From NCBI GenBank assembly GCA_005773635.1, contig SXHN01000009.1:1-64000 (forward strand): a DNA stretch of 64,000 bases, written 5' to 3'. A model generated the notes under the pieces. The model did not search any database. It saw only the letters and a list, made by a program, of their open reading frames with translations, and was not told where the DNA came from. Position 1 is the first letter of the stretch. Every line of letters begins with the position of its first letter. The DNA comes from Actinomycetota bacterium (GTDB taxonomy: Bacteria > Actinomycetota > Acidimicrobiia > IMCC26256 > PALSA-610). The position numbers and the translations under genes are program-made. Shown here in pieces: positions 12,870 through 61,518 of the stretch.

Positions 12870-12871
12870 AA

Positions 12872-14521: not shown

Positions 14522-14532
14522 TTGTTTCTCCG

Positions 14533-16824: not shown

Positions 16825-16834
16825 GCGATCGCTG

Positions 16835-17134: not shown

Positions 17135-17141
17135 CGCGACA

Positions 17142-20348: not shown

Positions 20349-20351
20349 CGC

Positions 20352-21119: not shown

Positions 21120-21582
21120 GTTGAATACGTTCTTGCAACATCACGATCGCTTGGATAAAGGCTTCGGGCCGCGGCGGGCATCCAGGGACATACACGTCCA
21201 CAGGAATGACTTGATCAATGCCTTTGGTAACTGAGTAACTATCCCAATACGGACCGCCGCAATTCGCGCACGAACCCATTGAGATGACGTATTTGGGATC
21301 AGGCATCTGTTCGTAGAGCCGTCGGATTGCAGGAGCCATCTTGTCGGTCACCGTGCCCGAAATGACGATGAGGTCGGCTTGACGCGGGCTTGCAGGAAAC
21401 GGAATGACACCAAGGCGCATCACGTCATAGCGCGGACCGGCGAGCGCCACACCCATTTCGATCGCGCAACAGGCGAGGCCCCACTGAAACATCCACAGCG
21501 AATACTTGCGGCTGTAGTTGAGGAGTTCGCCAACCGGCTTCAATGGGCCTTTGCGCAATGCCCCGCTGGTCATTAAGCCCAT
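21058..21582 (-). CDS. nuoB: Complex I subunit NuoB, N2 cluster (11-gene operon)
   Basis: A 174-residue subunit holding cluster N2, the last iron-sulfur centre before quinone. Ligands are the tandem cysteines in [10 protein letters not shown], the cysteine in [10 protein letters not shown] and that in [11 protein letters not shown]. Its start overlaps the nuoA end by about 10 nt. The sequence around CANCGG resembles ancestral complex I and related hydrogenase small subunits more than the CASSGG of the other copy. Confidence 0.96.
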
Positions 21583-21950
21583 TTGAGCAACCCTTTGCGC
21601 CAGAGGTAGGCGAGGCCCGCGACCAGAATCGCAACGAACACAAAAATTTCAATGAAGCCGAACCAACCAAGGCCGCCTTGGGCGGCGCCATCGGCATTCA
21701 GCGCCCAAGGAAATACGAACACAGCTTCGACATCGAAAATGACGAACATCAACGCGTACAGGTAATAGCGGACGTTCTGCTGGCCGAAACTGCCGACCGG
21801 GTCAGAACCCGATTCGTAGGTGATGTATTTCTGTGGTTGTGGTCGTGTGGGGCGCAGGAAATACCCAACACCCAACATCGCTCCCACCATGACGAGAGAA
21901 GCCAAAACGAAGACCCCGACCGACAAATACTGCCGGTAGTACTCAGTCAT
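21573..21950 (-). CDS. nuoA: Complex I subunit NuoA (11-gene operon)
   Basis: A three-helix membrane subunit, 125 residues from the ATG at 21948-21950; an in-frame GTG at 21987-21989 would add 13 residues. The family loop YESGSDPVG and the helix [20 protein letters not shown] are conserved, including the acidic residue near the quinone channel (here a Ser replaces the loop Cys that is accessible in mitochondrial ND3). First gene of the 11-gene operon; upstream is a divergent gap with the patatin gene. Confidence 0.94.
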
Positions 21951-22070
21951 CTCGCTAGTGGCAAGTTGGTCGCTTAGTAGCGCGATCACGAGTGGCTCGT
22001 TGCCCCCGGCTTGGCGGCATCAGACCCCATGAAGCCGGGACCCGCTGCCTTGTGATGGACGTGTCCGCGG

Positions 22071-24886: not shown

Positions 24887-26622
24887 CCGTGCTCACCATC
24901 TTCAGCATCGGTTTCAGTATGCGAGTCTTCTCCAGGTGACTCGCCACCCGATTCATGATCCTTGGGCGGAACTCGCACTGGTTCTTTGTAACACTCGCTT
25001 TCGCGGCCGTCGGCATCGTTGTTCTCGTCAAATTGGTCCGGCTCACACGTCCAGGTTTCGATGTGTGTCATCAAGTCTTTGACCGCGACCTCGCTACGGT
25101 CGAACAACGGCTTCGGGTAGAAGCCCAAGAACAAACTCAACGCCAACAACGGCACCACAGTTACGAGCTCACGAAACGAGATGTCTTGCATCGTTGCGTT
25201 GTCGCCTTCTGGCTCACCGGTGAACGCTCGCTGGTATGCCCACAACAAATACACCGCGGCAAGAATCACTCCTGCTGTTGCGGCGACGGCCCACCATCGT
25301 CGCGTCACAAACGTGCCGACCAACGCGGTGAACTCGCCCACGAACCCCGAAAACCCAGGAAGACCGATCGAAGCGAAGGTCGCAGCAAGAAAGAGCCCCG
25401 ACATGATTGGCACCGATTTCCACAGACCGCCGAGGTCTGCGATGAGTCGCGTGTGGCGGCGGTCGTAGATCATGCCAACGATCAAGAACAGCACACCGGT
25501 GGTGAGACCATGGCTCACCATGGTGAAGATGCCACCCTGCATGCCCTGCGTGGTGAGCGCGAACGTACCCATCACCACAAAGCCGAGGTGCGCCACCGAC
25601 GAATACGCGATGAGGCGCTTCAAATCGGGTTGCATTGTGGCCACAATCGCGCCGTAGATGATGCCGATCACCGCGAGGGTGAGCATGACGGGCGCAGCCC
25701 ATACGGCGGCCCGAGGGAACATTGGAATCGCGAGGCGCAGAAAGCCGTAGGTACCCATCTTGAGCATCACGCCAGCAAGCACTACCGAACCCGCGGTCGG
25801 CGCTTCGGTATGTGCATCGGGGAGCCATGTATGCAGCGGGAAGAGCGGCACTTTTACCGCAAACGCAATTGCGAAGCCGACGAACAGCAACTTCCCCGTG
25901 ACCGGCGCGATATTGCCACCGGCGGCAAATTCAGTGAGTTTGCCGATGGCAAAAGTCCAGTCGCCGGTTTCTTGGTGGTACAAGGCACCGAGCGTGAGGA
26001 TGGCGACGAACAAAAACGCGGAGCCCGCCATGGTGTAGAGGAAGAACTTCGTGGCGGCATACGCATTGTTGCCGTGACCCCACCCGGCGATCAAGAAATA
26101 CATGGGCACGAGTACAAGTTCGAAGAACACGAAGAACGCAATGAGATCACGGGCGACGAAGACACCGATGACACTCATCTCCAACAACAGCATCCAAACG
26201 GTGAAAGCCCGTGGGTTTTCAAGTTTCGCACTAGCAAGCAGGCCGATTGGAAAGAGCAATGCAGTCAGTACCACCATGAACAAGGCGATGCCGTCGATAC
26301 CAAAGTTGAACGACACGCCTACCGCATCAATCCAGCCGTGTTCTTCAAAAAATTGGTACCCATGCTGCGAAGTCTTGAAATTGAGCAACAAAAACACGGC
26401 CATGCCAAACGTCGCCATGGCGGCGACATACCCAATAACGCGTGCGTATTCAGGGCGACGTTTCGGCATCACCATCGCCAACAACGCGCCCGCGAGTGGC
26501 ACCAAAATCATCGCAGTCAATACTGGAAATGATCTGGTGCCGTGCTCAGTAGAAAACACCGTTTCGGAAAACATGGTGGTCGCTTTGCCTGCGGTATGAG
26601 TGACTGTCTCGGTCGCAATCAT
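24883..26622 (-). CDS. nuoM: Complex I subunit NuoM (14-gene operon) with acidic tail
   Basis: A 579-residue antiporter-like subunit. FFVFFELVLVPMYFLIAGWG holds the channel glutamate, and FAVKVPLFPLHTWLPDAHTE and LIAYSSVAHLGFVVMG follow in order. After the last helix there is a hydrophilic extension of about 65 residues rich in Glu and Asp, without counterpart in E. coli NuoM. The ATG at 26620-26622 overlaps the nuoL stop; a GTG six codons upstream is possible. It overlaps nuoN by 4 nt. Confidence 0.96.
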   Translation of the reverse strand: MIATETVTHTAGKATTMFSETVFSTEHGTRSFPVLTAMILVPLAGALLAMVMPKRRPEYARVIGYVAAMATFGMAVFLLLNFKTSQHGYQFFEEHGWIDAVGVSFNFGIDGIALFMVVLTALLFPIGLLASAKLENPRAFTVWMLLLEMSVIGVFVARDLIAFFVFFELVLVPMYFLIAGWGHGNNAYAATKFFLYTMAGSAFLFVAILTLGALYHQETGDWTFAIGKLTEFAAGGNIAPVTGKLLFVGFAIAFAVKVPLFPLHTWLPDAHTEAPTAGSVVLAGVMLKMGTYGFLRLAIPMFPRAAVWAAPVMLTLAVIGIIYGAIVATMQPDLKRLIAYSSVAHLGFVVMGTFALTTQGMQGGIFTMVSHGLTTGVLFLIVGMIYDRRHTRLIADLGGLWKSVPIMSGLFLAATFASIGLPGFSGFVGEFTALVGTFVTRRWWAVAATAGVILAAVYLLWAYQRAFTGEPEGDNATMQDISFRELVTVVPLLALSLFLGFYPKPLFDRSEVAVKDLMTHIETWTCEPDQFDENNDADGRESECYKEPVRVPPKDHESGGESPGEDSHTETDAEDGEHG

Positions 26623-28610
26623 CAGATTGCCCTCGTCCACATATACGCGAGCAGCATCACCGCGCCGGCCACGATGGCCAACGCGTAGTTGCGAACTAAC
26701 CCGGTCTGCATTCGGCGTAAACCATCACCGGCTTCCTTCACCGATCTCCCAATGCCGTTCACGGCACCGTCGATAGTCTTGCGGTCGACACCTTCAGCCA
26801 AAAACGTCGCGAACTTTGTCGCCGGGCCACTCACGAACTTCGCCAAGCCAATGTCGAGGAAGTATGCGTTTTCGAGTACTCGACTGAACGCGCCAAGACG
26901 GGACTCCATAGGGTCGACGCCATCGTCGGGCAATCCCCGTTGGTACATCGCCCGCCCGATCACGATGCCGATGATGCCAACGACAACTGCGCCGACTGAG
27001 AGCATGAAACCCGAGCTGAACGAGTCGATATGAATTTCTGGCGCACCCTCGAGCGACGGTTCCAACCAATGGGTCAAGAACTCAAGATTGGGCTGCGTAA
27101 ACGGTAACGACAAGAAACCGCCGACGATTGAAAGCCCACTCAACACCACGAGCGGAAGCACCATGGTGGTGGGAGATTCGTGAGGTTCGTGCGCATGGTC
27201 GGGTTCGGTCGCGTGTCCGTCTTCGCCATGGGCGGGTACGCGGAACCGCTCGTTGCCGTAAAACACAAGCCACACTTGACGGGTCATATAGAACGCTGTG
27301 AGCAACGCCGCCAGCATCCCAACGGCCCACAGAGCCTTGCCGGATACTCCTCCGCTAAAGAATGCCTTGGCAAGGATTTCGTCTTTCGACCAGAATCCCG
27401 CGAACGGCGGCACGCCCGCGATGGCCAGCCAGCCGAAGATGAACGTGAATCCAGTGATCGGCATGAACTTCTTCAGGCCGCCCATGCGGCGCATGTCTTG
27501 CTCGTGGTGCATGCCGTGGATGACTGACCCGGAACCCAAAAACAACAACGCCTTGAAGAATGCGTGCGTGACCATGTGGAACAAGCCGGCGCTGTAGGCG
27601 CCAACCCCCAAGGCCAAGAACATGTACCCCAATTGACTCAGCGTGGAGTAAGCGAGCACCCGTTTGATGTCGTTCTGACGAATCGCGACGGTAGCCGCGC
27701 CAAGCGCGGTGATTGCACCGACCCATGCCACGACGGTTCCCGCTTGGAGGCCCTCACCGAGATTCGAGAGATCGAAAAACGCGTGCGAGCGGCTGACCAA
27801 GAACACACCCGCGGTCACCATCGTGGCCGCGTGGATAAGGGCTGAAACTGGAGTGGGGCCCTCCATTGCATCGGGCAGCCAAATGTGCAACGGCACTTGC
27901 GCGCTTTTGCCCATCGCGCCGACAAAGAGCAACAAGGCAATCGCGGTCACGGTGCCATGCGAAATGTCACCGAGTTCGGATGCTCGCCCGAAGTGCACAT
28001 AGTCGAGTGTGCCGAACTTCGAAAAGATCAGAAACATCGCCAGCATGAAACCGAAATCGCCGACCCGGTTCGTGACAAAGGCTTTCTTGCCCGCAACCGC
28101 AGCAGAGTTCTTCTCAAACCAAAACGAGATGAGCAGGTATGAGCACAGACCCACGCCTTCCCAGCCCAAGAACGTCATCAGGAAGTTCGAGCCGAGCACC
28201 AATATGAGCATCGATGCCGCAAACAAGTTGAGGTACGCGAAGAATCGAGAAAAACGCGGGTCGCCGTGCATGTACCCGATGGAATACAGGTGGATGAGCG
28301 CGCCGATCCCGGTGACGAACAGCATCATCGTGACCGACAACGGATCGACGAGGAAGCCGAAGCTCACCGAGAAATCGCCAGTACCCGCGAACCACTTCCA
28401 CAGGTTGTACACGTGGTGGCGTTCTTCGCCAGGCTGCGACTGCAGTGCGAAGAAAGTGATCACCGACCACACGAAGCTCAGGCTGATTGTGCCGGTAGCA
28501 ATCCAGCCTGCCTTCGGTTCGCCGATGCGCTTGCCAAACAGCAGCAGAACAACGGCCCCGAGCGCGGGCGATGCCGGGACAACCCATACAAGGTCTAAGA
28601 AGCGTTGCAT
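26622..28610 (-). CDS. nuoL: Complex I subunit NuoL (14-gene operon)
   Basis: A 662-residue NuoL with the C-terminal lateral helix region. Motifs are LGWEGVGLCSYLLISFWFEK, VPLHIWLPDAMEGPTPVSAL and RVLAYSTLSQLGYMFLALG. A short His/Glu-rich loop (HAHEPHE) lies at the place where the other NuoL has its much longer His-rich insertion. It overlaps nuoM by one base and follows nuoK by 1 nt. Confidence 0.96.
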   Translation of the reverse strand: MQRFLDLVWVVPASPALGAVVLLLFGKRIGEPKAGWIATGTISLSFVWSVITFFALQSQPGEERHHVYNLWKWFAGTGDFSVSFGFLVDPLSVTMMLFVTGIGALIHLYSIGYMHGDPRFSRFFAYLNLFAASMLILVLGSNFLMTFLGWEGVGLCSYLLISFWFEKNSAAVAGKKAFVTNRVGDFGFMLAMFLIFSKFGTLDYVHFGRASELGDISHGTVTAIALLLFVGAMGKSAQVPLHIWLPDAMEGPTPVSALIHAATMVTAGVFLVSRSHAFFDLSNLGEGLQAGTVVAWVGAITALGAATVAIRQNDIKRVLAYSTLSQLGYMFLALGVGAYSAGLFHMVTHAFFKALLFLGSGSVIHGMHHEQDMRRMGGLKKFMPITGFTFIFGWLAIAGVPPFAGFWSKDEILAKAFFSGGVSGKALWAVGMLAALLTAFYMTRQVWLVFYGNERFRVPAHGEDGHATEPDHAHEPHESPTTMVLPLVVLSGLSIVGGFLSLPFTQPNLEFLTHWLEPSLEGAPEIHIDSFSSGFMLSVGAVVVGIIGIVIGRAMYQRGLPDDGVDPMESRLGAFSRVLENAYFLDIGLAKFVSGPATKFATFLAEGVDRKTIDGAVNGIGRSVKEAGDGLRRMQTGLVRNYALAIVAGAVMLLAYMWTRAI

Positions 28611-28611
28611 C

Positions 28612-28938
28612 TCAGCCCTTCATCAAATCGATGTCGTCGGCGGTAACGCCCTGGCGACGGCGGAAAATAGCCACGATGATTGCAAGACCTACTGCGACTT
28701 CAGCGGCAGCGACGATCAGCGTGAAGAACACTGCGGCCTGGCCGGCAGAGTCGTCGAGTGCCTTAGCGAATGTGACGAATGTGAGGTTCACTGCGTTCAG
28801 CATGAGTTCCACACACATAAACATCACAATGGTGTTGCGGCGCAACAGCATGCCAGTCGCGCCGATCGTGAACATGACCGCCGCGAGGATGAAATAGTGT
28901 TGGGCGCCGATTTCGAACGCTGAAACTGCCAGCATCAC
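28612..28938 (-). CDS. nuoK: Complex I subunit NuoK (14-gene operon)
   Basis: A 108-residue three-helix subunit; conserved Glu in [17 protein letters not shown] and [17 protein letters not shown]. The start overlaps the end of nuoJ by 4 nt. The C-terminal DDIDLMKG resembles the DDVNVLKG end of the other NuoK, a sign of shared descent. Confidence 0.96.
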
Positions 28939-29525
28939 GCGGCGACCTCCTCACGACTTGGGCGCGAACTTCTCCGGGCCAATACCACCGAGCCAATGAC
29001 CGCAATCACCAACAGTGCCGCGGTGACTTGAAATTGCCAAGCGAACTGCGTGAACAACGTACGGGCCATTGGGCGGATGTTGTCGACGTCGCCAGTTGCG
29101 CCAGCTTCCTCGATTCCTCTGCGACTTGCAGTTCGTGCGCCCAGTTGCCAATTCGTGACCGTCATACCAATGAGGGCAACCAACGTGCAGGCACCGAGGA
29201 CGGCACCACCAATGCGCTGATATTTGCGGTCGTCGGCGGCAAGCATTTCTTGGCGGTCGATGCCAAGCAGCATGATGACAAATAGAAACAGCACCACGAT
29301 CGCACTCGCATACACAATTACCTGGACAATGGCCACCATTGGTGCGCTCAGCGTGAGGAAGAACACTGCGATGACGATCATTGTGGCCACCAAGAACAGC
29401 GCCGAATGGACCGGGTTGCGCGAGATCACCACGCCGATCGCACCGGCCAACGCTAGAGCAGCAAGCGCGTAAAACAGCACGGCGTTGACATGAAACGACT
29501 CCGTTGCGGCAAGCATCGCGTGCAT
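28935..29525 (-). CDS. nuoJ: Complex I subunit NuoJ (14-gene operon)
   Basis: A 196-residue five-helix subunit with the helix-3 signature [22 protein letters not shown] loop of about 30 residues between helices 4 and 5 makes it longer than the other copy. It ends with a basic [13 protein letters not shown] tail. The ATG touches the nuoI stop (one-base overlap). Confidence 0.96.
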
Positions 29526-30172
29526 TAGTGATGCCCTCCCGCGTGCAGGTCGGGGCCGACAGTTGGTGCCGGAGTGTCGACATCGGCGGTTTGACCGACC
29601 TCAGGAGACCGCACGCCAAAGCCAAGTTCGCCCGACCAGTTCACACGATCTTCGTAGGCGGCTTGGCCCGACGACGACGTCGCGCGCATCCACGCGGACG
29701 TGTGATCGTCTTCACCGCCAGCCCAGTGCTCCCACGGCATGCGCTGCGCGCGCCCTTGGTCGTCGACCACAAGTTCGGCTTTGGTGTAGATGGCGTCCTG
29801 GCGATTCGAAAAGCTGAACTCGAACAGCTTCGACTCGGTGATGGCTTGTGTGGGGCACGCCTCGACGCACAAATCACAGTGGATGCAGCGTAAATAATTG
29901 ATCTCGTACACGAAACCAAACCGTTCGCCGGGGCTCACCGGGGCATCAGGTGGATTATCGGCACCTCGCACGTAGATGCACTTGGCCGGGCACACGCCCG
30001 CGCACAGTTCGCAGCCGATGCACTTCTCCATGCCGTCTTCGTACCGGTTCAGCACATGGCGGCCGTGGAAACGCTCTGGTTTCGGGCGCTTCTCGTCGGG
30101 GTACAGCGTCGTGACGCGTTTGGCTTTCCCCGTCTCGCGGATGACGACGCCGAAACCCTTCATGAAACCCAT
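29525..30172 (-). CDS. nuoI: Complex I subunit NuoI, 2x[4Fe-4S] (14-gene operon)
   Basis: A 215-residue subunit with clusters N6a and N6b in CIGCELCAGVCPAKC and CIHCDLCVEACPTQA. It starts MGFMKGFGVVIRETGKAKRV and has a C-terminal extension of about 50 residues beyond the ferredoxin fold, ending in a His-containing tail. It shares a one-base overlap with nuoH. Confidence 0.96.
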   Translation of the reverse strand: MGFMKGFGVVIRETGKAKRVTTLYPDEKRPKPERFHGRHVLNRYEDGMEKCIGCELCAGVCPAKCIYVRGADNPPDAPVSPGERFGFVYEINYLRCIHCDLCVEACPTQAITESKLFEFSFSNRQDAIYTKAELVVDDQGRAQRMPWEHWAGGEDDHTSAWMRATSSSGQAAYEDRVNWSGELGFGVRSPEVGQTADVDTPAPTVGPDLHAGGHH

Positions 30173-31380
30173 TAGCGAAACTCCTCTACCGTCTCACCGG
30201 GTTTGGGGACACACAGCATCAATACGCCATACAACACAAGGCAAGCCGTGGCTGCCAGCCCAACGGTGGTGTAACGGTTCCAACCATTTTTCTTGGCGAG
30301 TTCGAGCGCGATTTCGAACATGATCCACAAGATTGCTGCCTCAATCAAATACTTCCAGCAAAAGGCCATCAGCTTGTCGTAGCGCATCCGTGGGGTAGCG
30401 GCGCGCAGCCACACCGTGCCGTAGGTGAGTGCGATCGTTTTGATCATGAACCAGAAGATGGGCATAAGCCACACGTTGATGAAGTTGTCGGCGTCGATGA
30501 ATCCCAACGAAGGTCCGCTCGGACCACCCAAAAACAGCGTCGTTGCGATCGCGCACATCGTGATCACATTCATGAATTCGGCGAGAAAAAAGATGGCAAA
30601 ACGAATTCCCGAGTACTCGGTAATGAATCCGCCCACAAGCTCTTGTTCAGCTTCCACAAGATCGAAGGGTGGATGATTCGTTTCCGCAAGTGCCGCAATG
30701 ATGAAAATGAAAAACGCGCCGAAGGCGGGGACCAGGTTCCAACCTTCGTAGAACGATCGCCAGTTTTCCCATGCTTGGAGCGACGCGATTTCACGGGTCG
30801 AGAGCGTGCCGGTGTGGATAAGTGCCCCGAGAATTCCAAGACCGAAGGCGGCTTCATACGACAACAGCTGCGCGGATGCGCGCACTGAACCAAGCAGCGG
30901 GTACTTCGAACCACTCGACCAGCCTGCGAGCATCACTCCGTATACGCCGATACCAGAACACGCCAACACGAACATGGCACCGAACGGCAGATCTACAACT
31001 TGAAGCGATGTAGTGCGCCCGAGAATCGTTACTTCGCCGCCGATCGGCACCACACAAAACATCAAGAACGCGGGCATGATCGACAGGTACGGCGCTAAAC
31101 GAAATACGCCACGGTGAGCACTACTCGGAATGGTCTGTTCCTTGAAGAACAACTTGATGCCGTCGGCCAGAGTTTGCAAGATACCGAATGGGCCAGCTTT
31201 CGCCGGGCCGACCCGGTTTTGCATGTCGGCAATCCATTTACGCATGCCCCATATGTAGAGCATGACGCCAACCAACAAGAGCACGAATGCCACAAGCACT
31301 TTGATGATGACAACGACCGACGATGTCAACAAGTCGCCGTCCGCGAAGAGCGCCTTGGCGGCACCGAACAGGACGTTCAC
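30172..31380 (-). CDS. nuoH: Complex I subunit NuoH (14-gene operon)
   Basis: A 402-residue quinone-tunnel subunit, with MQNRVGPAKAGPFGILQTLA, SYEAAFGLGILGALI and FDLVEAEQELVGGFITEYSG in the usual places. It has two extra C-terminal helices compared with the 353-residue copy, as in other actinobacterial NuoH. It overlaps nuoG by 4 nt. Confidence 0.96.
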   Translation of the reverse strand: MNVLFGAAKALFADGDLLTSSVVVIIKVLVAFVLLLVGVMLYIWGMRKWIADMQNRVGPAKAGPFGILQTLADGIKLFFKEQTIPSSAHRGVFRLAPYLSIMPAFLMFCVVPIGGEVTILGRTTSLQVVDLPFGAMFVLACSGIGVYGVMLAGWSSGSKYPLLGSVRASAQLLSYEAAFGLGILGALIHTGTLSTREIASLQAWENWRSFYEGWNLVPAFGAFFIFIIAALAETNHPPFDLVEAEQELVGGFITEYSGIRFAIFFLAEFMNVITMCAIATTLFLGGPSGPSLGFIDADNFINVWLMPIFWFMIKTIALTYGTVWLRAATPRMRYDKLMAFCWKYLIEAAILWIMFEIALELAKKNGWNRYTTVGLAATACLVLYGVLMLCVPKPGETVEEFR

Positions 31381-33980
31381 CGGATTGTCTCCACGCGTAC
31401 ATCGTTTACCACTGCCGCCGCATCGATGAGCGCATTCGCTGCGTTACCTGAGCCCGCAGCGAGCTGCGCGACCCCCGGCTGCAAGCCCTTGATCGCTTGC
31501 ACCACGATGTTGAAGGCGCCGTTCGCCGAGGCGACATGCACTTCGGTGCCGTTCGGCACCCCGAGGCGTTGAAGATCGGCGGCTGCAACCAACAATTTAG
31601 GTACGGTTCGCAGCCCGACCAGCGATGGAGACTCACTCACCGCGCTGCCGTGGTCGTAGAGAGAAACCGAACCGATCAGGCGCAGCGCGTAAGCGTCGCG
31701 CCCTGGTAGATCGACCCGCACAGAACCACCGTCCCAACGCAACAGAGCAAAGGCATCTTGCGTGTTCCCGTTCTCAGGCACCGACTCCACGGTGATCTCC
31801 GCTTCCACCTTGATTGGCTCCCACGAGACGCCGTCGGGGCCGTCGAGTGTGAGGCCCAAGCCTTTGCGCAATTGCACTTCCGCGTGGTGCTGCGCCACCG
31901 GAATACGCACTCCATCGCGCGCTGAACGAAACAGCTGCGCAGACCCACCAGCTAGCGCCGGTGCGACACTCACCAACTCGTTGGTGACTTCATCGACGGT
32001 TTCCAAGTCGAAATCGTGACCCAGACGAAACGCAAGCTCGCTGGCGATACGCCAGTCGTCCATTGCAAGGCCGTCGGGCGACACCTTTTGGTTCACTCGT
32101 TGTATTCGGCCCTCAAGATTGGTGATCGTTCCAGACTTTTCGCCGAACATCGTGGCGGGAAGCACAACCTTGGCGCGTTGTGTGGACTCGTTGTGAAACC
32201 CATCGATCGCAATCACAGTCGGGACGGCGCGCACGGCAGCCTCGGCAAGAGCCCGGTCGGGGAAATCGGCGATTGGATCAGCGCCAATGAGTACCAAGGC
32301 CTTGATCTTTCCTTCGAGGGCGGCGCGCAACATTGCTTCGGTGTCGAGACCCGGAGCTTCTGGGATCGCCGACCACTTCGCCGCAACAGCATCGCGGTAT
32401 TCGATGGTGACGCGGCCTGGAAGAATGCCGGGCGCTAGACCAGCCTCGAGGGCGCCGTGCACATTGCCGCGCCGCAACGCCGAAAGAAATTTCACGTTCG
32501 GAAGTTGGGCCAGTGCGGCAACGGCTTGCACTGTGGCGTCACTACGTTCCGCGAGGTTGGCGCGACCTAACACCACAACGATCGTGCCGGCTCGGGCTTT
32601 CATCGTGGCTGCTGCCGCAGCTATCACTCCATCACTGGAAGCGCCATTGACTGCTGCGACCAGCTGTTCGGCCCGGGCGCCCTGTTCTCCTGGCGCGGCG
32701 GCCAACGCATGCGTTACCTCGCTCGAGAGCCCGTGGGGCGCACACGAAAAATCGATCAACGGCACCCTGAGGTCGAGCGCGGCGCGGCGCAACCGAAGAT
32801 GCAGCACCGGCAGCGCCTCTTTGAGGTCGGGAGCTAACAACACAATCGCGGCGGCCGAATCGCATTCGGCAATCGATGCTCGCTCCACGCCGAGGATCAG
32901 TTCGGCGGGTAGACCGTCACCAAGTTGGGCATCGACATTATCGGTGCCGAGCACGCCTTTGGCGAGCCGCGACCAGGCATACGCGTCTTCGTTGGTGCCG
33001 CGGGCACCGCCGATAAACCCGATTGATTCCGCACCGTGGAGATCGCGAGCGGATCGCAACGCGTCCGCCGCAGCATCCAAGGCTTGCGGCCACGAAGCAA
33101 TGGCCCCATTGAGCAGCGGCTCACGAATGCGGTCGTCGCTGTGCACGTACTCAAAGCCATAACGGCCTTTGTCGCACAACCAGCCATGATTGACGGCGTT
33201 GCTATCGATCCCAAGCAATCGCACCAGTCGATTTGAAGAACTCTGCAACGCGCCCCGGCATTGCACCGAACACTGTGTGCAACTGGTTTCGACAGTCGCA
33301 AGATCCCACGGGCGGGCGCGGAATCGATACGGCTTTGCCGTGAGCGCGCCGACCGGACAGATCTGCACCACGTTGCCGGAGAAATACGAGGCAAACGGAT
33401 GATTCGGATGATTCAGCACCTGTGTGTGACCGCCGCGGTCAACAAACGAAATCAGCGGATCACCGGCGATTTCGTCAGCGAACCGTGTACAACGCGCGCA
33501 CTGGATGCAGCGCTCCCGATCAAGCAAGACAACGTTGCTAATTGGAATCGGCTTTTCAAAATGTCGCTTCTCCTCCACGAAACGGCTTTCACCAGGACCA
33601 AATGCAAGCGTTGTGTCCTGCAGTGGGCACTCACCGCCGCGATCACATACTGGGCAGTCGAGTGGGTGGTTCACGAGTAAGAACTCAAGAATGTCATCTT
33701 GGGCCTGCTTGACCGCCGGAGTCTCGGTGTGACACACCATCCCTTCGGCAACCGGCATCGTGCATGCCGGAGGAAGCCCGCGTATGCCGTCCACTTCCAC
33801 AAGGCACATGCGACACATGCCAACTGGTTTCATGCGCTCATGCCAACAGAAACGCGGAATGTACACGCCGTTTTCCTGGGCGACTTTGATCAGCATCTCA
33901 CCGGGTATTGCCTCGACGGTATTGCCGTCGATGGTTACTGAAACGGTGGTCTTGGTCGATTGCGGCTCCGTTGTCGTCAC
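31377..33980 (-). CDS. nuoG: Complex I subunit NuoG (NADH module)
   Basis: An 867-residue iron-sulfur subunit. The [2Fe-2S] site is in GVYIPRFCWHERMKPVGMCR, then HPLDCPVCDRGGECPLQD (His-ligated cluster N5) and CIQCARCTRFADE. CTQCSVQC with a later WLCDKGR forms a fourth C-x2-C-x3-C...C site, the N7 cluster found only in some bacteria. The rest is a molybdopterin-oxidoreductase-like domain. The start is set at GTG 33978-33980, overlapping the nuoF stop (GTGA); the longer open frame from 34001 is less likely. Confidence 0.95.
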   Translation of the reverse strand: MTTTEPQSTKTTVSVTIDGNTVEAIPGEMLIKVAQENGVYIPRFCWHERMKPVGMCRMCLVEVDGIRGLPPACTMPVAEGMVCHTETPAVKQAQDDILEFLLVNHPLDCPVCDRGGECPLQDTTLAFGPGESRFVEEKRHFEKPIPISNVVLLDRERCIQCARCTRFADEIAGDPLISFVDRGGHTQVLNHPNHPFASYFSGNVVQICPVGALTAKPYRFRARPWDLATVETSCTQCSVQCRGALQSSSNRLVRLLGIDSNAVNHGWLCDKGRYGFEYVHSDDRIREPLLNGAIASWPQALDAAADALRSARDLHGAESIGFIGGARGTNEDAYAWSRLAKGVLGTDNVDAQLGDGLPAELILGVERASIAECDSAAAIVLLAPDLKEALPVLHLRLRRAALDLRVPLIDFSCAPHGLSSEVTHALAAAPGEQGARAEQLVAAVNGASSDGVIAAAAATMKARAGTIVVVLGRANLAERSDATVQAVAALAQLPNVKFLSALRRGNVHGALEAGLAPGILPGRVTIEYRDAVAAKWSAIPEAPGLDTEAMLRAALEGKIKALVLIGADPIADFPDRALAEAAVRAVPTVIAIDGFHNESTQRAKVVLPATMFGEKSGTITNLEGRIQRVNQKVSPDGLAMDDWRIASELAFRLGHDFDLETVDEVTNELVSVAPALAGGSAQLFRSARDGVRIPVAQHHAEVQLRKGLGLTLDGPDGVSWEPIKVEAEITVESVPENGNTQDAFALLRWDGGSVRVDLPGRDAYALRLIGSVSLYDHGSAVSESPSLVGLRTVPKLLVAAADLQRLGVPNGTEVHVASANGAFNIVVQAIKGLQPGVAQLAAGSGNAANALIDAAAVVNDVRVETIR

Positions 33981-35314
33981 GCTGGCACTCCCGCGGCACA
34001 CGCAGCCTCGACCTCAGCGCGGAAATACTTTTGCAAACTTGCGATCGCGCTCACAGGCGACGGCCCAAGTGGGCAAATCGTGGTCTGTGTAAACGGCGCC
34101 TTCATCACGTCCGGCGAGATGCCCGCGGAGATGTCGAGCAGCGCGTCCATATCGTTCGGACGACCTTGTCCGTGGCTCATTCGGTATAACACTTTTTCGA
34201 GCCAGCCCGAACCTTCACGGCATGGCGTGCATTTGCCGCAACTTTCGTGCGCGTAGAACTTCGCCAGCCTCCACGCAACTAAGAGCGGATCGGTGTCTTC
34301 GTCGTACACCATGATCGCGCCCGAGCCAAGTGTGGTGCCGAGCTTTGCCGAAATGTCATCGATGTCGTAGACCTGATCGAGGTGTTCGTCAGAAGCGATG
34401 AGCCACTGGAACGATGCTCCGCCCGGCAAGAAAAACTTGAGTTGCTTGTCGCCGCGGATACCGCCTGCGATCCCGAAGATGATGTCACGCAACGTCATGC
34501 CAAATTCGAGTTCGTATACGCCGGGATTGTTGACGTGGCCGCTAATCGCCGCGAGCCGCGTGCCCGTTGAACGATTAACACCGAGGTTCGCGTACTGCGC
34601 ACCACCCATCTTGAGAATGTGGGGAATCGTGCAAACGGTCTCAACGTTGTTGACCACGGTTGGTTCTGAATACAGCCCGACATGGATCGGAAGCGGGGGC
34701 TTAATGCGCGGCATTCCGCGCTTGCCCTCAAGGCTTTCGATTAACGCGGACTCTTCACCGCAGATGTAGGCACCCGCACCTCGATGCACAACGATTTCGA
34801 CATCAAAACCGGAGCCAAGAATGTTGCTGCCCACGTATCCCGCAGCGCGGGCATCGTGCACGGCTTGTTCGATCCGGTCAGCGCCAAGTGCAAATTCGCC
34901 ACGCAAATAGATGAAAGCACGGTGGCTGCCGATGCGATAGGCCTCAATGCACACGCCTTCAATGAGAGCGTGAGGGTCGCCTTCAATGAGCAAGCGATCT
35001 TTGAATGTTGATGGTTCGCCTTCGTCGCCGTTGATCACCAAATGCCGCGGCAAGCCATTGTCGGGCAACGATTCCCACTTAATAGCGGTCGGAAAGTTCG
35101 CGCCGCCACGGCCGCGCAAGCCTGAGGCTTTGACTTCGTCGTGAATCCACTGAACATCCGCGCGGCGCAGCACTTCTTTCCATATTTCATAGGCACCATC
35201 TGAGGTCGCACGCTCAAAGGTGTGCGCATCGTCGGGAAACTCGCGCACCCTGCGCGAAACAATGAGAGTCTCTCGCACCTCTTTGCGGGCTGGGGTCTCG
35301 ACTGCTTCACTCAT
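33977..35314 (-). CDS. nuoF: Complex I subunit NuoF, NADH-oxidising (NADH module)
   Basis: A 445-residue flavoprotein that accepts hydride from NADH. GLRGRGGANFPTAIKWE is the NADH/FMN-binding loop, NGDEGEPSTFKDR the FMN site and ESCGKCTPCREG with the later TICPLG cysteine the N3 [4Fe-4S] ligands. It overlaps nuoE by 4 nt. No counterpart exists in the 11-gene operon. Confidence 0.97.
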   Translation of the reverse strand: MSEAVETPARKEVRETLIVSRRVREFPDDAHTFERATSDGAYEIWKEVLRRADVQWIHDEVKASGLRGRGGANFPTAIKWESLPDNGLPRHLVINGDEGEPSTFKDRLLIEGDPHALIEGVCIEAYRIGSHRAFIYLRGEFALGADRIEQAVHDARAAGYVGSNILGSGFDVEIVVHRGAGAYICGEESALIESLEGKRGMPRIKPPLPIHVGLYSEPTVVNNVETVCTIPHILKMGGAQYANLGVNRSTGTRLAAISGHVNNPGVYELEFGMTLRDIIFGIAGGIRGDKQLKFFLPGGASFQWLIASDEHLDQVYDIDDISAKLGTTLGSGAIMVYDEDTDPLLVAWRLAKFYAHESCGKCTPCREGSGWLEKVLYRMSHGQGRPNDMDALLDISAGISPDVMKAPFTQTTICPLGPSPVSAIASLQKYFRAEVEAACAAGVPA

Positions 35315-35802
35315 GCGTGCACCGCTCCGCCACTTACACCACGCGCCACAAGGCGACCAGCTTTGTAATCCTCAACAACCTGCTCGGCAGATTCCGGTGT
35401 GAGGTGTTCGTGGTATTCGTAGTTCACTTGCATTGAAGGCGCGTTTCCGCAGGCAGCAAGGCACTCGACTTCTTCCACGAACACGTCGTTGTCGTTGGCG
35501 TACTTGTGTTCAAGGTGTTCCAACACTTCGGGGCCGCCGACAACCAGGCACGTAACGTTGGTGCACACCGACACTACGAAATTGCCGCACGGACGCCGTT
35601 TGTACATCGTGTAAAACGAGCACACACCTTGCACGTCGGCTGCGGTGGTGTCGCAATAGTCAGCAATTTCGTCCATTGCGTCAAGACTCAACCAACCATC
35701 TTGGTCTTGGGCTAGATGCGCGAGCGGCAGGATCGCAGAATGCGCCTTCGGATACTGCGCAACGATTTCTACGGCACGCTTCTTGTTCGCTTCAGTAAAC
35801 AT
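35311..35802 (-). CDS. nuoE: Complex I subunit NuoE, [2Fe-2S] (NADH module)
   Basis: A 163-residue thioredoxin-fold subunit with cluster N1a; ligands in SVCTNVTC and in VECLAACGNAP. It is the standard length for the 24-kDa subunit. It lies 3 nt after nuoD and overlaps nuoF by 4 nt. Confidence 0.96.
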   Translation of the reverse strand: MFTEANKKRAVEIVAQYPKAHSAILPLAHLAQDQDGWLSLDAMDEIADYCDTTAADVQGVCSFYTMYKRRPCGNFVVSVCTNVTCLVVGGPEVLEHLEHKYANDNDVFVEEVECLAACGNAPSMQVNYEYHEHLTPESAEQVVEDYKAGRLVARGVSGGAVHA

Positions 35803-35805
35803 GAC

Positions 35806-37098
35806 TTAGCGATCCACCTCACCCATAATCGGGTCGATCGACGACACAATTGCCACCGCGTCAGCGACCAATGCGTTTTTCACCATTGGTCCCATCGCCT
35901 GCAAGTTGTAAAACGACGGCCCACGAATGTGCATGCGCACGGGCTTCGCGCCGCCATCGCTCACCATGTAGCAACCGATTTCACCGCGCGGGCTTTCCAC
36001 TTGCGCGTACGTCTCGCCAGCTGGAACTTTAAAGCCCTCGGTGAACAGTTTGAAATGATGAATCAGTGCTTCCATCGATTCGTCGATACGCGCACGCGGC
36101 GGCGGGGTTACCTTGCGATCTTGGCTCCGGTAGTCGCCCTTCGGCATCTTCGCCACGCATTGCTTCACGATCTTGATCGACTCGCGAATTTCTTCGAGGC
36201 GGATCTGGTATCGGTCGAACACGTCGCCGTTATCGGTGTAGATAATGTCGAAATCGATGTCTTCGTACGCGAGATACGGCTGCGCTTTTCGCAAATCCCA
36301 GGCGAATCCGGTGCTGCGCAGCACCGGGCCGGTAATCGAATGGGCAAGGCACTCTTCAGTGGTGATTGTGCCAACACCTACCGTGCGCTCGCGCCAGATT
36401 GGGTTTCCCGACAACAGCGTGTCGTAGCTATCGACGCCTACCGCCACTTTGTCGAGAGTCGCCAACGTTTCTGCCTGCCAATTATCTGGAAGGTCGGCGG
36501 CGACGCCACCCACGCGAATGAAGTTGTGATTCATCCGCAAGCCCGTAATGATCTCGAGCAGCCGCAGCGCTTCTTCGCGCTCGCGCCAGCCGTAGAGCAT
36601 CATGGACACGGCGCCGAGGTCCATCCCGTTTGTGGCCTGAAACAACAGGTGTGAAGTAATACGATTGAGTTCGACGAGCATCATGCGAATCCACGTTGCC
36701 CGCTCGGGAATTTCGAGACTGAGGAGTTGCTCGGCCGCGAGGCAGTACACCAACTCGTTGGACAGCGGCGATGCATAATCCATGCGGGTCACATTGGTGC
36801 AGCCCTGCACAAAGGTGAGTTCTTCACCCGTCTTTTCCATTCCGGTATGGAGGTACCCAATCACAGCTTTGGCGCGCACCACCTCTTCGGAATCCAGTTC
36901 CATCATGATGCGCAACACGCCATGAGTAGAAGGGTGTTGCGGACCCATGTTGATGATCATGGTGTCCCCGAGATCATCATCGGGCCAAGGCGCACCGGTC
37001 ATCACAATTTCTTTCGAGGAGCCGCGGAGCTCCTGTTGTGACTCGGCAGTTTGATACTGCAATCGCTGGGTTTCGGGGTCGTTGAGAAGTTCGCTCAT
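35806..37098 (-). CDS. nuoD: Complex I subunit NuoD, 49-kDa type (14-gene operon)
   Basis: A 430-residue quinone-site subunit from the ATG at 37096-37098, which overlaps the nuoC stop (ATGA). GPQHPSTHG holds His59; position 85 is Thr in GYLHTGMEK, as in many bacterial NuoD, while the 11-gene copy has Arg at the equivalent place. The C-terminus DPIMGEVDR is canonical. The upstream in-frame extension to 37176 lies within nuoC and is rejected. Confidence 0.96.
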   Translation of the reverse strand: MSELLNDPETQRLQYQTAESQQELRGSSKEIVMTGAPWPDDDLGDTMIINMGPQHPSTHGVLRIMMELDSEEVVRAKAVIGYLHTGMEKTGEELTFVQGCTNVTRMDYASPLSNELVYCLAAEQLLSLEIPERATWIRMMLVELNRITSHLLFQATNGMDLGAVSMMLYGWREREEALRLLEIITGLRMNHNFIRVGGVAADLPDNWQAETLATLDKVAVGVDSYDTLLSGNPIWRERTVGVGTITTEECLAHSITGPVLRSTGFAWDLRKAQPYLAYEDIDFDIIYTDNGDVFDRYQIRLEEIRESIKIVKQCVAKMPKGDYRSQDRKVTPPPRARIDESMEALIHHFKLFTEGFKVPAGETYAQVESPRGEIGCYMVSDGGAKPVRMHIRGPSFYNLQAMGPMVKNALVADAVAIVSSIDPIMGEVDR

Positions 37099-37655
37099 CG
37101 GGGGCTTGGATCTCCCTTGAACGTCACCGGCACGCGCGCCGGTGCATAGTCTTTTCGCAGCGGATGCCCTTCCCAATCATCGGGCAACAAGATTCGAGAG
37201 TGGTCAGGGTGACCCTCAAATTCAATGCCGAAGAGGTCGAATGTTTCTCGCTCGGAGAAATTCGCGCCAGGGAATACGGCGGTGATGCTCGGCGCCGTTG
37301 TATCCGAATCGGAAATTTGGGCAATGGTCCGGATTCGGCGATTGCGGGCGTGACTCAAGTACTGGGTGACTAATTCGAAACGCTCTTGGGTAACCCCCGG
37401 GGCACAGTGGCGCACCGCATCTGCAACATGATCGACAGCACAAATGTCGATCAACATCGTGAATCGTTCTTCGTCGCGCAAATACTTGGCTACCTCAGCT
37501 TGGTGTGCCTTGTCGATGTAGACCACTGCTTGTCCGAGGCTTTCGAAGAACGTCGAACCCGCGAAGCGCTCGCACAGCGCGGCTGCGACCGCATCCGAGG
37601 GCACTTCGAGCGGAGTTTCAGGCTCGTGATCTTCTTCACGAACTGCGTCAGTCAT
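37095..37655 (-). CDS. nuoC: Complex I subunit NuoC, 30-kDa type (14-gene operon)
   Basis: A 186-residue subunit with the signature FSERETFDLFGIEFEGHPDH and the LRKDYAPARVPVTFKGDPS end. It has a short N-terminal acidic stretch. It starts 33 nt after nuoB, the widest internal gap of this operon, and is coupled to nuoD. Confidence 0.95.
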   Translation of the reverse strand: MTDAVREEDHEPETPLEVPSDAVAAALCERFAGSTFFESLGQAVVYIDKAHQAEVAKYLRDEERFTMLIDICAVDHVADAVRHCAPGVTQERFELVTQYLSHARNRRIRTIAQISDSDTTAPSITAVFPGANFSERETFDLFGIEFEGHPDHSRILLPDDWEGHPLRKDYAPARVPVTFKGDPSPR

Positions 37656-37688
37656 CGCGGCAAAAGCTTTCGAAAGAGGCGAACAGGA

Positions 37689-38237
37689 TCAAACAGATAC
37701 GGGAGCGGGCGGTTGCAGTTGGTATTCAGCACCACCGGTGGTGCTCGCAGTTCGGCGCCGCATGAGCTCGCCGTTCTTGATCATTTCGTGCAGGGTAATG
37801 ATCCCATGCAACAGCGTTTCGGGGCCAGGAGGGCACCCCGGCACATAGACATCGACGGGAACGATTTGATCGACACCTTGGACGATCGCGTAGTTGTTGA
37901 ACATTCCGCCACTGCTGGCACACACTCCCATGGAAATCACCCATTTGGGTTCGACCATCTGGTCGTACACCTGGCGAAGCACCGGCGCCATCTTCTGGCT
38001 GACCCGGCCCGCGACGATCATCAGGTCGGCGTGGCGCGGACTCGCCCGAAAAGTCTCCATGCCGAAGCGAGCGATGTCGTAGTGCGGAGCGCCAGTGGCC
38101 ATCATCTCAATTGCGCAGCAGGCCAACCCGAAGGTGGCGGGCATCACTGAGTTGCGACGGGCCCACTTCACGAGATCTTCAATCTTGCCAGTTGCAAAGC
38201 TGTGCGGAATCGCTTCGAGCCCTAGGTGTGGAGGCAT
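37689..38237 (-). CDS. nuoB: Complex I subunit NuoB, N2 cluster (14-gene operon)
   Basis: A 182-residue subunit with N2 ligands in [20 protein letters not shown] and [11 protein letters not shown]. Canonical bacterial NuoB. One-base overlap with nuoA. Confidence 0.96.
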
Positions 38238-38698
38238 TACGCAGCTTCTCCTGGATTTGATTTTTTGGCGTCGGAAGGATCAAGCATTGACACCTTCGAC
38301 CGCAGCACCGGGGCCAGCTGGCGCATACCCTCGACGACCTGTTTCGGCCCCCAACTCAGCGCACCGACCGACAATAGGTACCCAAAGGGCACCAACAAAC
38401 CCGCTACGTAGATGCCCATGAGGCCCAGGCCATAGGCGCCAAGGTCCTTGAATACCGTCGCGAATGGGTACAGGAACACGATCTCAACATCGAGCACGAT
38501 GAAGCTCATCGCAACCAGATAAAACTTCACAGGGAATCGCTCGGTCGGCTCGGATTCAGGGACGATGCCGCACTCGTACGGGGCCTGCTTGGCGCTATTG
38601 GGGCTACTCGGTCCTAACGCCTCAGAGGCGACAAACGACAGAAACACGAACGCGAACACCACGCCGATCATGACCAGCAGTGGGAGGTAGATGATCAC
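38237..38698 (-). CDS. nuoA: Complex I subunit NuoA (14-gene operon)
   Basis: A 153-residue three-helix subunit starting at GTG 38696-38698 with AGGTG upstream. The loop [23 protein letters not shown] is cut to its key part YECG, which keeps the loop Cys that the other copy lacks, and [15 protein letters not shown] is the conserved helix 2. First gene of the 14-gene operon; the promoter must lie in 38699-39072. Confidence 0.95.
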
Positions 38699-58940: not shown

Positions 58941-60167
58941 CTAGCGACACTGCACGGGTTCGCGGGCGGCGAGATCGCCGTAAGCCCGCCGCAGCCGCAC
59001 CGCGGTTGAGTTCCACGAAAACTGCTGAGATCGCGAGGCGCCTTGAGCCCCTAGCGAGGCACCGAATGCAGGATCGCTCAAAATCTTGTCGATGCACGCC
59101 GCGAAATCGGTCGGGGAACGCCCCTCGACCAAAAAGCCGGTTCGTCCGTCATCGACAATCGACCGCAAGCCGCCTACTGAAGCAGCCACCACTGGAGTGC
59201 CGCACGACGAAGCTTCAAGCGCAACCAAACCGAACGATTCGGAGTGTGACGGAACTACGCAGACGTCTGCGGCTCGGTAATAGTCAGCCAACTCCGAGTG
59301 CGGCACGGAGCCAACGAACTCAACTTGGCGCTCAATTCCCAGTTCCACGGTCAAATTGCGCAATCGTTCCAATTCCTCGGGACCGATCGGACCACTCGGG
59401 TCACCCACCATCAGCAACTTCGCGTTGGTCCGCGTCAACTCCCCGAACGAACGCAGGGCCAATTCGCCGCCTTTCAACGGCTGAATACGGCCAGCAAACA
59501 ACACCACATCATGACCTACATAGCCAAGCCTGCGCTTCGATTCGTCCCGGTGCCGCGAGTGAAAGATCGAATGGTCGACGCCAGGTGGGACGATTTCAAT
59601 GCGCGCCGGATCGGCGTCATAGCCAACAATGAGATCGCGCTCTTCATCACGAGTTGATGCGATCATCAGGTCGGCGCAGGCGATGATCGACCGCTCCGCG
59701 GCGGCTCGTCCATGCAGTTCTTCGTCGATTCCTGCCGCGTGCTTAACAAAATCGAGCGTATGGAACGTAGTCACGAGTGGGAGACCGAACTCATGCTTCA
59801 AGCGATGCGCGACAACGCCGGACATCCAGTAATGAGCGTGCAGCACGTCGTAGTGCCCGTTGTGACGTTCAATCCAGGCACAGACTGCATCGCCAAAGGT
59901 TTCGAGCAACGGGGGTAATAATTCCTTTTCGATGCTGCTCGGCGGGCCAGCGTCGATGTGCACGACACGTACACCCGGTTCAAGCTCGACAATCTCTGCG
60001 ATGTCTGGGTCGTCGCGTCGAGTGAATACATCACACTGCACCCCAGCGCGCGCCAAACCAGCGACCAACGACCGCACGTAGACATTCATCCCACCGCTAT
60101 CGCCTCTTCCGGGCTGAGCGAGCGGGGATGTGTGGACGCTGAACGCAGCGACTCGACGAAGCGACAT
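58941..60167 (-). CDS. mshA: D-inositol-3-phosphate glycosyltransferase MshA
   Basis: A 408-residue GT4-family enzyme of mycothiol synthesis, joining UDP-GlcNAc to inositol phosphate. It starts with SVHTSPLAQPGRGDSGGMNVYV, the typical MshA nucleotide-sugar loop, continues with DVLHAHYWMSG, VTTFHTLDFVKHAAG, FAGRIQPLKGGELALR and the C-terminal SESFGLVALEASSCGTPVVA with conserved Glu. It marks the host as an actinomycete. It is followed by YbjN at 26 nt and preceded by the XRE regulator at 32 nt on the same strand. Confidence 0.95.
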   Translation of the reverse strand: MSLRRVAAFSVHTSPLAQPGRGDSGGMNVYVRSLVAGLARAGVQCDVFTRRDDPDIAEIVELEPGVRVVHIDAGPPSSIEKELLPPLLETFGDAVCAWIERHNGHYDVLHAHYWMSGVVAHRLKHEFGLPLVTTFHTLDFVKHAAGIDEELHGRAAAERSIIACADLMIASTRDEERDLIVGYDADPARIEIVPPGVDHSIFHSRHRDESKRRLGYVGHDVVLFAGRIQPLKGGELALRSFGELTRTNAKLLMVGDPSGPIGPEELERLRNLTVELGIERQVEFVGSVPHSELADYYRAADVCVVPSHSESFGLVALEASSCGTPVVAASVGGLRSIVDDGRTGFLVEGRSPTDFAACIDKILSDPAFGASLGAQGASRSQQFSWNSTAVRLRRAYGDLAAREPVQCR

Positions 60168-60199: not shown

Positions 60200-60586
60200 T
60201 TATTCCAGAGGGCTTTCCAGACGAGATCCGTTGCGGGCGGCCACCTCAGCTTGGAACGACCGATATATCCGCACGAGTGCATCTTTGTGGTCTTCGGTAA
60301 TCGTGGTATCACGCAAGATTTCGGCCACGAGGTTGGGGCCGGCTGGGCGCTCCTCAAGCAAACCGGCCCGCTCGTAGAGCGTTTCGGCCGATATTCGCAA
60401 TCCCTTAGCGATGCCTTGCAAAATCTCCGCTGATGGCTTGCGCAATCCTCGTTCAATCTGGCTCAGATAGGGATTCGAGATGCCCGCTCGTTCCGAAAGC
60501 CCCCGGAGCGAAAGCCGGGAACTACGCCGTTGATCGCGAATGAACGCACCAAGATCGTGCCATCGCTCAAATGGATCAGGCGCCAT
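60200..60586 (-). CDS. XRE-family helix-turn-helix regulator
   Basis: A 128-residue protein with an N-terminal Cro/C1 HTH (about 12-66: IRDQRRSSRLSLRGLSERAG and SNPYLSQIERGLRKPSAEI) and a short C-terminal helical region. It belongs to a group of short actinobacterial regulators often found near mshA. Targets and signals unknown. It lies 15 nt after the RsiG-like gene. Confidence 0.88.
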   Translation of the reverse strand: MAPDPFERWHDLGAFIRDQRRSSRLSLRGLSERAGISNPYLSQIERGLRKPSAEILQGIAKGLRISAETLYERAGLLEERPAGPNLVAEILRDTTITEDHKDALVRIYRSFQAEVAARNGSRLESPLE

Positions 60587-60601: not shown

Positions 60602-61210
60602 TCAAATCCCGGCGGCGGCGCGAACCGCTAGGGCATTATCCACAACATCAATCACATCGTGGAGTCGGCGCCGATCATCGGAGAGTTCGCGCTCGAATGC
60701 CTGCAACCGCTCAAGCACCGAACCCAGCTCATCGTCAGCAATCACCGGCAGGGTCGCGAGAGATTCGTCGCCAGAAACGAGCTCTTCGCGGCCATCGGGC
60801 CAGGTCAATTCAATGAACGTCAGGTCGGGTTCCACCAAACGGGAATCCGATGCACTCGAGCGAATGGTCTCTCCGCCGAGAATGTTGGGTAACGCGTCAA
60901 TGAGCTCAGCAATCGAACCCCCGCGCGCCCTACGAGCTTGCTCGGCTTCGAGAATCTCGATACGCGCCTGGGCCAAACGACGGTAATAACTCACTGCGTT
61001 CTCGACCGCAGAAGCCTCAGCTTTAAAGGCGCGCAACGCGGTCTCATCGTGGTCGCTCAGGCCACTCACTACGCCCGGGGCAATAAGCGCTTCTATACGG
61101 TCGATGACACACCTCCAAAGCCGGCGTCCGAGGTGCACCCTACCGGTGCAATGGACGTTCGGTCGTTCCAAACAGGTTCCCATCGGCGATTGCGGCGCAA
61201 AGCTTCGCAC
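60602..61210 (-). CDS. RsiG-like c-di-GMP-responsive anti-sigma factor
   Basis: A helical protein of up to 202 residues. It carries two copies of the RsiG c-di-GMP signature E-x3-S-x2-R-x3-Q-x3-D, each with one change: E70-S74-R77-Q81-E85 (D to E) and E173-S177-R180-H184-D188 (Q to H). Between them are an Ala/Arg-rich and an acidic linker. Streptomyces RsiG uses these two helices to hold a c-di-GMP dimer and sequester sigma-WhiG. The true start is unclear; the conserved part begins near 61108 and a GTG at 61136-61138 is possible. No sigma factor gene is in this window. Confidence 0.75.
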   Translation of the reverse strand: MRSFAPQSPMGTCLERPNVHCTGRVHLGRRLWRCVIDRIEALIAPGVVSGLSDHDETALRAFKAEASAVENAVSYYRRLAQARIEILEAEQARRARGGSIAELIDALPNILGGETIRSSASDSRLVEPDLTFIELTWPDGREELVSGDESLATLPVIADDELGSVLERLQAFERELSDDRRRLHDVIDVVDNALAVRAAAGI

Positions 61211-61269: not shown

Positions 61270-61518
61270 TTACCCTCCTGACACCGGCGGCAGCACCGCA
61301 ACTTCGTCACCATCACGGAGCACCGTCTCTGGTCCTGACTGAGGTTCGTCACCATTGAGCCACACCCGTGACGTTGCGAGTACGTGCTGCCACTCAATCC
61401 CGTAACGCTGTGCCGCAAGCTCGAGCACCTCATGCACAGAGGCTGCTACAAAGGAATCCGAACTGCATCCGCTTGCCTCCCGGGCTCCAGCAAAGCATCG
61501 CAGGACAACCTTGGCCAT
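61270..61518 (-). CDS. MoaD/ThiS-family sulfur carrier
   Basis: An 82-residue ubiquitin-fold protein ending VLPPVSGG, the di-glycine tail that is adenylated and thiocarboxylated. MoaD of molybdopterin synthase is the closest fit, but ThiS or CysO-like roles are possible as no partner gene (moaE, thiG or moeB) is next to it. ATG at 61516-61518. It precedes the RsiG-like gene on the same strand. Confidence 0.85.
   Translation of the reverse strand: MAKVVLRCFAGAREASGCSSDSFVAASVHEVLELAAQRYGIEWQHVLATSRVWLNGDEPQSGPETVLRDGDEVAVLPPVSGG

What the first reader, a model, noticed from the sequence alone, without database searches (positions are those of the whole stretch)
60602..61210. RsiG-like protein with two degenerate c-di-GMP motifs outside Streptomyces
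Both helices of the RsiG signature E-x3-S-x2-R-x3-Q-x3-D are present, at 70-85 and 173-188, with single conservative changes (D to E; Q to H). RsiG binds a c-di-GMP dimer and holds sigma-WhiG; in Rubrobacter the homologous pair has been linked to type IV pilus genes. This window has a pilus locus whose motor also has a c-di-GMP domain, so a shared signalling circuit is plausible.
Basis: partly seen in the sequence, partly recalled or inferred. Interest (0 to 1): 0.78.

Follow-up and report, generated by a model that had tools for sequence, protein, structure and literature searches.

The report
Twin-motif RsiG anti-sigma factor, Acidimicrobiia
This gene encodes a normal, conserved relative of the Streptomyces protein RsiG, which uses the signal molecule c-di-GMP to hold a sigma factor (WhiG) inactive; the partner is present in the same genome, but a link to the pilus genes in this window is not supported.

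Summary
The ORF lies on the minus strand and encodes a bona fide RsiG: Pfam RsiG-like at 63 bits (cut-off 27), best solved relative S. venezuelae RsiG, and a predicted fold whose four best Foldseek matches are all RsiG. Both motifs exist, but 'degenerate' is misleading: S and R are invariant in 50 class homologues, H in motif 2 is the class norm, and D to E in motif 1 is shared by all 12 homologues of the window's family. The gene probably starts at 61105, apparently on ATC (167 aa). The genome has a real WhiG that keeps the c-di-GMP-contacting K/G/R; a second, flagellar FliA lacks them. RsiG and WhiG co-occur in 119 of 198 class genomes (8 have only one). The window's pilus genes have no WhiG-type promoter, so the pilus circuit is unsupported here. 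Instead, sigma28-type promoters precede a secreted glucosaminidase-like protein (conserved in the family) and perhaps GGDEF genes; across the class such sites precede cell-wall hydrolases, histidine kinases, GGDEF proteins and one prepilin operon. Twin-motif RsiG in Acidimicrobiales was already published (PMC8325347): a new member of a known kind; only the regulon hint is new.

The parts
60602..61105 (-). rsiG, probable true extent (167 aa, apparent ATC start after GGAGG-N6)
   Evidence: Pfam RsiG 63 bits; N-terminus and missing ATG/GTG/TTG compared across 12 family genomes; AlphaFold model with two long helices, 21-60 and 124-165
   Evidence: not conserved; G015 has an in-frame stop
60956..61003 (-). 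c-di-GMP motif 1 (alpha1), ENAVSYYRRLAQARIE: E-S-R-Q-E, final D to E
60647..60694 (-). c-di-GMP motif 2 (alpha5), ERELSDDRRRLHDVID: E-S-R-H-D
60200..60586 (-). XRE-family HTH regulator, 15 bp downstream of rsiG, probably cotranscribed; follows rsiG in most relatives examined
   Evidence: Pfam HTH_3/HTH_31; gene order
58941..60167 (-). MshA-like GT4 glycosyltransferase, conserved neighbour
61270..61518 (-). MoaD/ThiS family protein, conserved upstream neighbour

Best explanation
It is a twin-motif RsiG: a monomeric antiparallel coiled-coil that, when c-di-GMP is high, binds an intercalated c-di-GMP dimer through one motif on each helix and so clamps the genome's WhiG sigma factor (contig C60, 262 aa) away from RNA polymerase. 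When c-di-GMP falls, WhiG is released. Shown here: family membership, fold similarity, both motifs, presence of the partner and conservation of its c-di-GMP-contacting residues, and co-occurrence across the class. Inferred from the solved S. venezuelae and Rubrobacter complexes: c-di-GMP binding, sequestration and the direction of the switch. The likely output in this family is a small set of sigma28-type promoters, in part leaderless (CTCAAG...CCGAT about 8 nt before the start codon), in front of an envelope hydrolase-like protein and possibly c-di-GMP turnover genes, rather than the pilus operon of this window. FliA may share these promoters.
For: Pfam RsiG, two stretches; the only RsiG hits in the genome are these two; PDB phmmer; Foldseek ranks 1-4 = 6pfv/6pfj RsiG, E 3.5e-4 to 2.6e-3. 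WhiG: NCBIfam FliA_WhiG 275 bits; PDB best hit S. venezuelae WhiG 2.5e-93 against 4e-46 for FliA; sits just before tsf-pyrH-frr-like ORFs; LVKFVAGR keeps K57/G61/R62 of S. venezuelae WhiG, whereas the flagellar paralogue reads LVGYVVTE (contacts from PMC8325347). K/G/R is kept in 28 of 29 WhiG examined. RsiG and WhiG: 119 both, 2 RsiG only, 6 WhiG only, 71 neither. 19 GGDEF matches in the genome, so c-di-GMP signalling exists. Promoters.
Against: No binding or genetics. The final D of motif 1, which reads a guanine edge in the solved complexes, is E in this family; E could make the same contact, but this is untested. Genomes lacking both genes fall mostly in two lineages, so the co-occurrence statistic overstates independence. 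VIA-align gives the RsiG match Z 10.3, level with other long helical hairpins, so the fold alone is not diagnostic. WhiG and FliA recognise similar promoters and this genome has both.
Confidence: 0.87

Rival explanations
1. RsiG and WhiG control the type IV pili of this window, as proposed for Rubrobacter; PilB's MshEN domain adds a second c-di-GMP input to the same machine.
For: Rubrobacter precedent (PMC8325347); MshEN on PilB; a sigma28-type site just upstream of a minor-pilin operon in G058 of the same class.
Against: No sigma28-type site before the window's pil operon, pilT or pilin, nor before the other prepilin ORFs scanned; rsiG is 53 kb away in a conserved non-pilus neighbourhood; G058 also has a FliA, which could own that promoter.
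Confidence: 0.1
2. RsiG in this family restrains the flagellar FliA (contig C43) rather than, or as well as, WhiG.
For: The organism has a flagellar locus and FliA; rsiG and the fliA homologue lie 20-28 kb apart on one contig in G015, G020, G036 and G080.
Against: FliA lacks all three c-di-GMP-contacting residues; many class genomes have RsiG and only the WhiG-type sigma.
Confidence: 0.07
3. The altered motifs have lost c-di-GMP binding and RsiG acts as a constitutive anti-sigma factor or is inactive.
For: D to E at a specificity position in motif 1.
Against: S and R are invariant 50/50 in both motifs; E is conserved as E in the whole family, not scattered; H at the stacking position is shown functional in Conexibacter RsiG (PMC8325347); the gene is retained together with WhiG.
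Confidence: 0.05

Closest known systems
Streptomyces venezuelae RsiG (6PFJ, 6PFV), monomeric twin-motif anti-sigma of WhiG
   Same: two motifs, one on each long helix; similar length and predicted fold; genome carries a close WhiG relative
   Different: E instead of D at the end of motif 1, H instead of Q in motif 2; organism is an Acidimicrobiia member with a flagellar locus and a separate FliA
Twin-motif RsiG of Acidimicrobiales (3 of 4 species in PMC8325347)
   Same: same class, same architecture; this is another member
   Different: that paper's main text reports presence only; no regulon is proposed there for this class
Rubrobacter radiotolerans single-motif RsiG (7LQ2-7LQ4)
   Same: same motif and the same type of partner
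   Different: single motif and homodimer; there linked to pil and dgc/pde promoters, a pilus link not found here
FlgM and other FliA anti-sigma factors (from general knowledge, not searched here)
   Same: target a sigma28-type factor
   Different: FlgM is exported through the flagellum and has no c-di-GMP motif; no FlgM-like hit appeared for this protein

Membership tests
RsiG (PF22802), twin-motif form | Profile match above curated cut-off | tested here: met
   63.1 bits against 27, two stretches
RsiG (PF22802), twin-motif form | Two E(X)3S(X)2R(X)3[Q/H](X)3D motifs | tested here: inconclusive
   motif 2 fully met with H; motif 1 met at four of five positions, final D is E, as in all 12 family members and 3 other homologues of the class
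RsiG (PF22802), twin-motif form | Antiparallel coiled-coil of two long helices | tested here: met
   helices 21-60 and 124-165, pLDDT about 85-94; Foldseek ranks 1-4 are RsiG
RsiG (PF22802), twin-motif form | WhiG encoded in the same genome with c-di-GMP-contacting K/G/R | tested here: met
   P0002, LVKFVAGR; 28 of 29 WhiG
RsiG (PF22802), twin-motif form | Binds a c-di-GMP dimer and sequesters WhiG | not testable with these tools
   needs purified proteins
Rubrobacter-type RsiG/WhiG pilus circuit | Flagellar-type promoters before pil genes | tested here: not met
   no such site before the window's pil genes or the other prepilin ORFs scanned
Rubrobacter-type RsiG/WhiG pilus circuit | Flagellar-type promoters before dgc/pde genes | tested here: inconclusive
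   2 of 16 GGDEF genes against 4 of 528 other genes, P = 0.011, post hoc, motif defined here

The most novel reading that the evidence does not exclude
In Acidimicrobiia the RsiG-WhiG switch governs a dispersed set of sigma28-type promoters, many of them leaderless, that drive peptidoglycan hydrolases, surface proteins and c-di-GMP enzymes: an envelope-remodelling and c-di-GMP feedback regulon that may be close to the ancestral role before sporulation took it over in Streptomyces.
Probability: 0.35. Interest if true: 0.6.

Novelty: new member of a known kind. Interest (0 to 1): 0.36.

Why it matters
What WhiG does in simple, non-sporulating actinobacteria is an acknowledged gap (PMC4255298 notes that there was no analysis of WhiG's role in motile simple actinobacteria). 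The class offers a natural comparison, since WhiG occurs with FliA in some genomes and alone in others, and it gives concrete promoters to test. The family-wide D to E change also offers a natural variant of the c-di-GMP reading residue.

Tried and rejected
TAAA-N15-GCCGATAA with up to two mismatches in the whole genome is not enriched (117 sites against 183 for the reversed control), so loose matches were not used. The one exact match (C56) lies inside a 775-aa ORF and was rejected. Pattern hits in the window itself were at chance. The genome-contig scan returned only two named relatives, one titled Acidimicrobiia bacterium KatS3mg009. NCBIfam has no hit for the protein. VIA-align could not separate RsiG from other helical hairpins.

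Full report
Observation. The stretch 60602-61210 encodes, on the minus strand, a 202-codon ORF. It matches Pfam PF22802 (RsiG-like) at 63.1 bits, cut-off 27, in two stretches. Its best solved relative is S. venezuelae RsiG (6pfj_T, 1.2e-7), then Rubrobacter RsiG (about 0.014).

The gene start. In the family genomes the conserved protein begins near a 'RI..L(L/I)..' segment. In the window's genome, in G015 (same genus) and in G020 no ATG, GTG or TTG is in frame at that point; G015 has an in-frame TAG 10 codons before it. GGAGG-N6-ATC-GAC-CG(T/C)-AT is conserved in all three. The simplest reading is an ATC start at 61105 and a 167-aa protein. This is inference from sequence.

The motifs are not degenerate. 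In 50 aligned homologues of the class, S and R are invariant in both motifs. The stacking position of motif 1 is Q (39) or H (11); that of motif 2 is H (37), F (7), Q (5) or Y (1). The final residue of motif 1 is D (35) or E (15), E in all 12 of the family. Schumacher et al. 2021 (PMC8325347) already note Q/H exchange, in motif 1, and show c-di-GMP binding by an H-type RsiG.

Fold. AlphaFold2 with three sequences gives mean pLDDT 75.8, with two long confident helices, 21-60 and 124-165, joined by a largely low-confidence linker. The four best Foldseek hits in the PDB are all S. venezuelae RsiG chains (E 3.5e-4 to 2.6e-3). VIA-align gives Z 10.3 for RsiG, no better than unrelated helical hairpins, so the fold supports but does not prove membership.

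The partner. The genome has two FliA/WhiG-type sigma factors above the NCBIfam cut-off. P0002 (contig C60, 262 aa) lies just before tsf, pyrH and frr (ORFs; gene names from my reading of the translations) and matches S. venezuelae WhiG at 2.5e-93 against about 4e-46 for FliA. P0003 (contig C43) lies beside flgL/flgK-like ORFs (same caveat). In the solved complexes WhiG touches c-di-GMP through K57, G61 and R62 (PMC8325347). P0002 keeps them (LVKFVAGR); P0003 does not (LVGYVVTE). So WhiG, not FliA, is the predicted partner. Across 198 genomes of the class RsiG and WhiG are both present in 119, RsiG alone in 2, WhiG alone in 6, neither in 71. Several single cases are incomplete assemblies, and the 'neither' set is dominated by two lineages, so the nominal P value should not be taken at face value.

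Neighbourhood. rsiG is followed by an XRE-type HTH gene in most of the 27 relatives examined, and by an MshA-like glycosyltransferase, a YbjN protein, proC and a SAM hydrolase-like gene; MoaD/ThiS lies upstream. This is a vertically inherited chromosomal setting, unrelated to pili.

Output. Exact sites TAAA-N14-16-GCCGATA followed by a start codon 6-12 nt on number 34 in WhiG-positive genomes against 13 for the reversed pattern, and 9 against 14 in WhiG-negative ones (counted by hand; one search tested 34/13 against 9/13, binomial P 0.003 for the first, Fisher P 0.017; the last count should read 14). In WhiG-positive genomes about half of the sites open an ORF of 200 aa or more; none of the eight WhiG-negative sites examined does. 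Pfam assigns the products to LysM-NlpC/P60, M23 peptidase, histidine kinases, a MoxR-type AAA ATPase, GGDEF proteins (G193, G092, and G007 with a matching site in G133) and a prepilin-like protein (G058; N_methyl below its cut-off, but with a canonical GFTLVE site); a CAP-like secreted protein (G066, G078) was recognised by eye. The GGDEF and prepilin cases are in genomes that also have a FliA-like sigma, so their sigma is undecided; genomes with only the WhiG-type sigma give LysM-NlpC/P60, CAP-like, histidine kinase and MoxR targets.

In the window's own genome a secreted glucosaminidase-like protein (P0004; Pfam Glucosaminidase 25.3 bits, below its 30.2 cut-off) has TCAAG-N14-GCCGATAA 8 nt before its ATG. 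Sites of the same form, with varying match to the consensus, stand 8-11 nt before the start codon in nine of the other family orthologues examined, strongest in G015, weak in G199, G107 and G166. With this family-type motif, 2 of 16 GGDEF genes and 4 of 528 other genes scanned have a site (P 0.011); this is post hoc and small. One of the four is a GntR-like regulator by eye; chance is not excluded.

Pili. The window has PilB with MshEN, PilC, a PilT-like ATPase and a prepilin. None has a WhiG-type promoter by the patterns tried, nor do the other prepilin ORFs of the genome that were scanned. The proposed shared circuit is therefore unsupported here, though absence of a consensus match is not proof.

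Novelty. Twin-motif RsiG in Acidimicrobiales is published (PMC8325347). In Streptomyces the PDE RmdB also antagonises RsiG on WhiG (PMC13232838). No paper in the library combined Acidimicrobiia with type IV pili and c-di-GMP. The class-wide promoter hint is new as far as these searches show, but needs experiments.

Noticed in passing
window 61103-61116 (minus strand); L095, L098: rsiG of G000, G015 and G020 seems to start on ATC after GGAGG-N6, with no ATG/GTG/TTG available in frame.
   Followed up: partly
window 11364-21989 and 26622-38698 (minus strand): Two separate complex I (nuo) gene clusters in one window.
   Followed up: no
window 5740-7593 (minus strand): PilB-type ATPase with an MshEN domain carrying two RxGxxL...Q-like repeats, a likely direct c-di-GMP input to the pilus motor.
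   Followed up: partly
L352 12114-13580 in reverse-strand search; G000 C47:52117-53580, minus: Secreted glucosaminidase-like protein with a sigma28-type leaderless promoter; the same form is seen again in nine family orthologues.
   Followed up: yes
L358 12721-13491 (G000 C115, minus): GntR-like regulator (by eye) with a leaderless sigma28-type promoter; WhiH of Streptomyces is a WhiG-dependent GntR-type regulator, but chance is not excluded.
   Followed up: no
window 60200-60586 (minus strand): XRE-family HTH protein 15 bp downstream of rsiG, 95% identical in G015 and next to rsiG in most relatives.
   Followed up: partly
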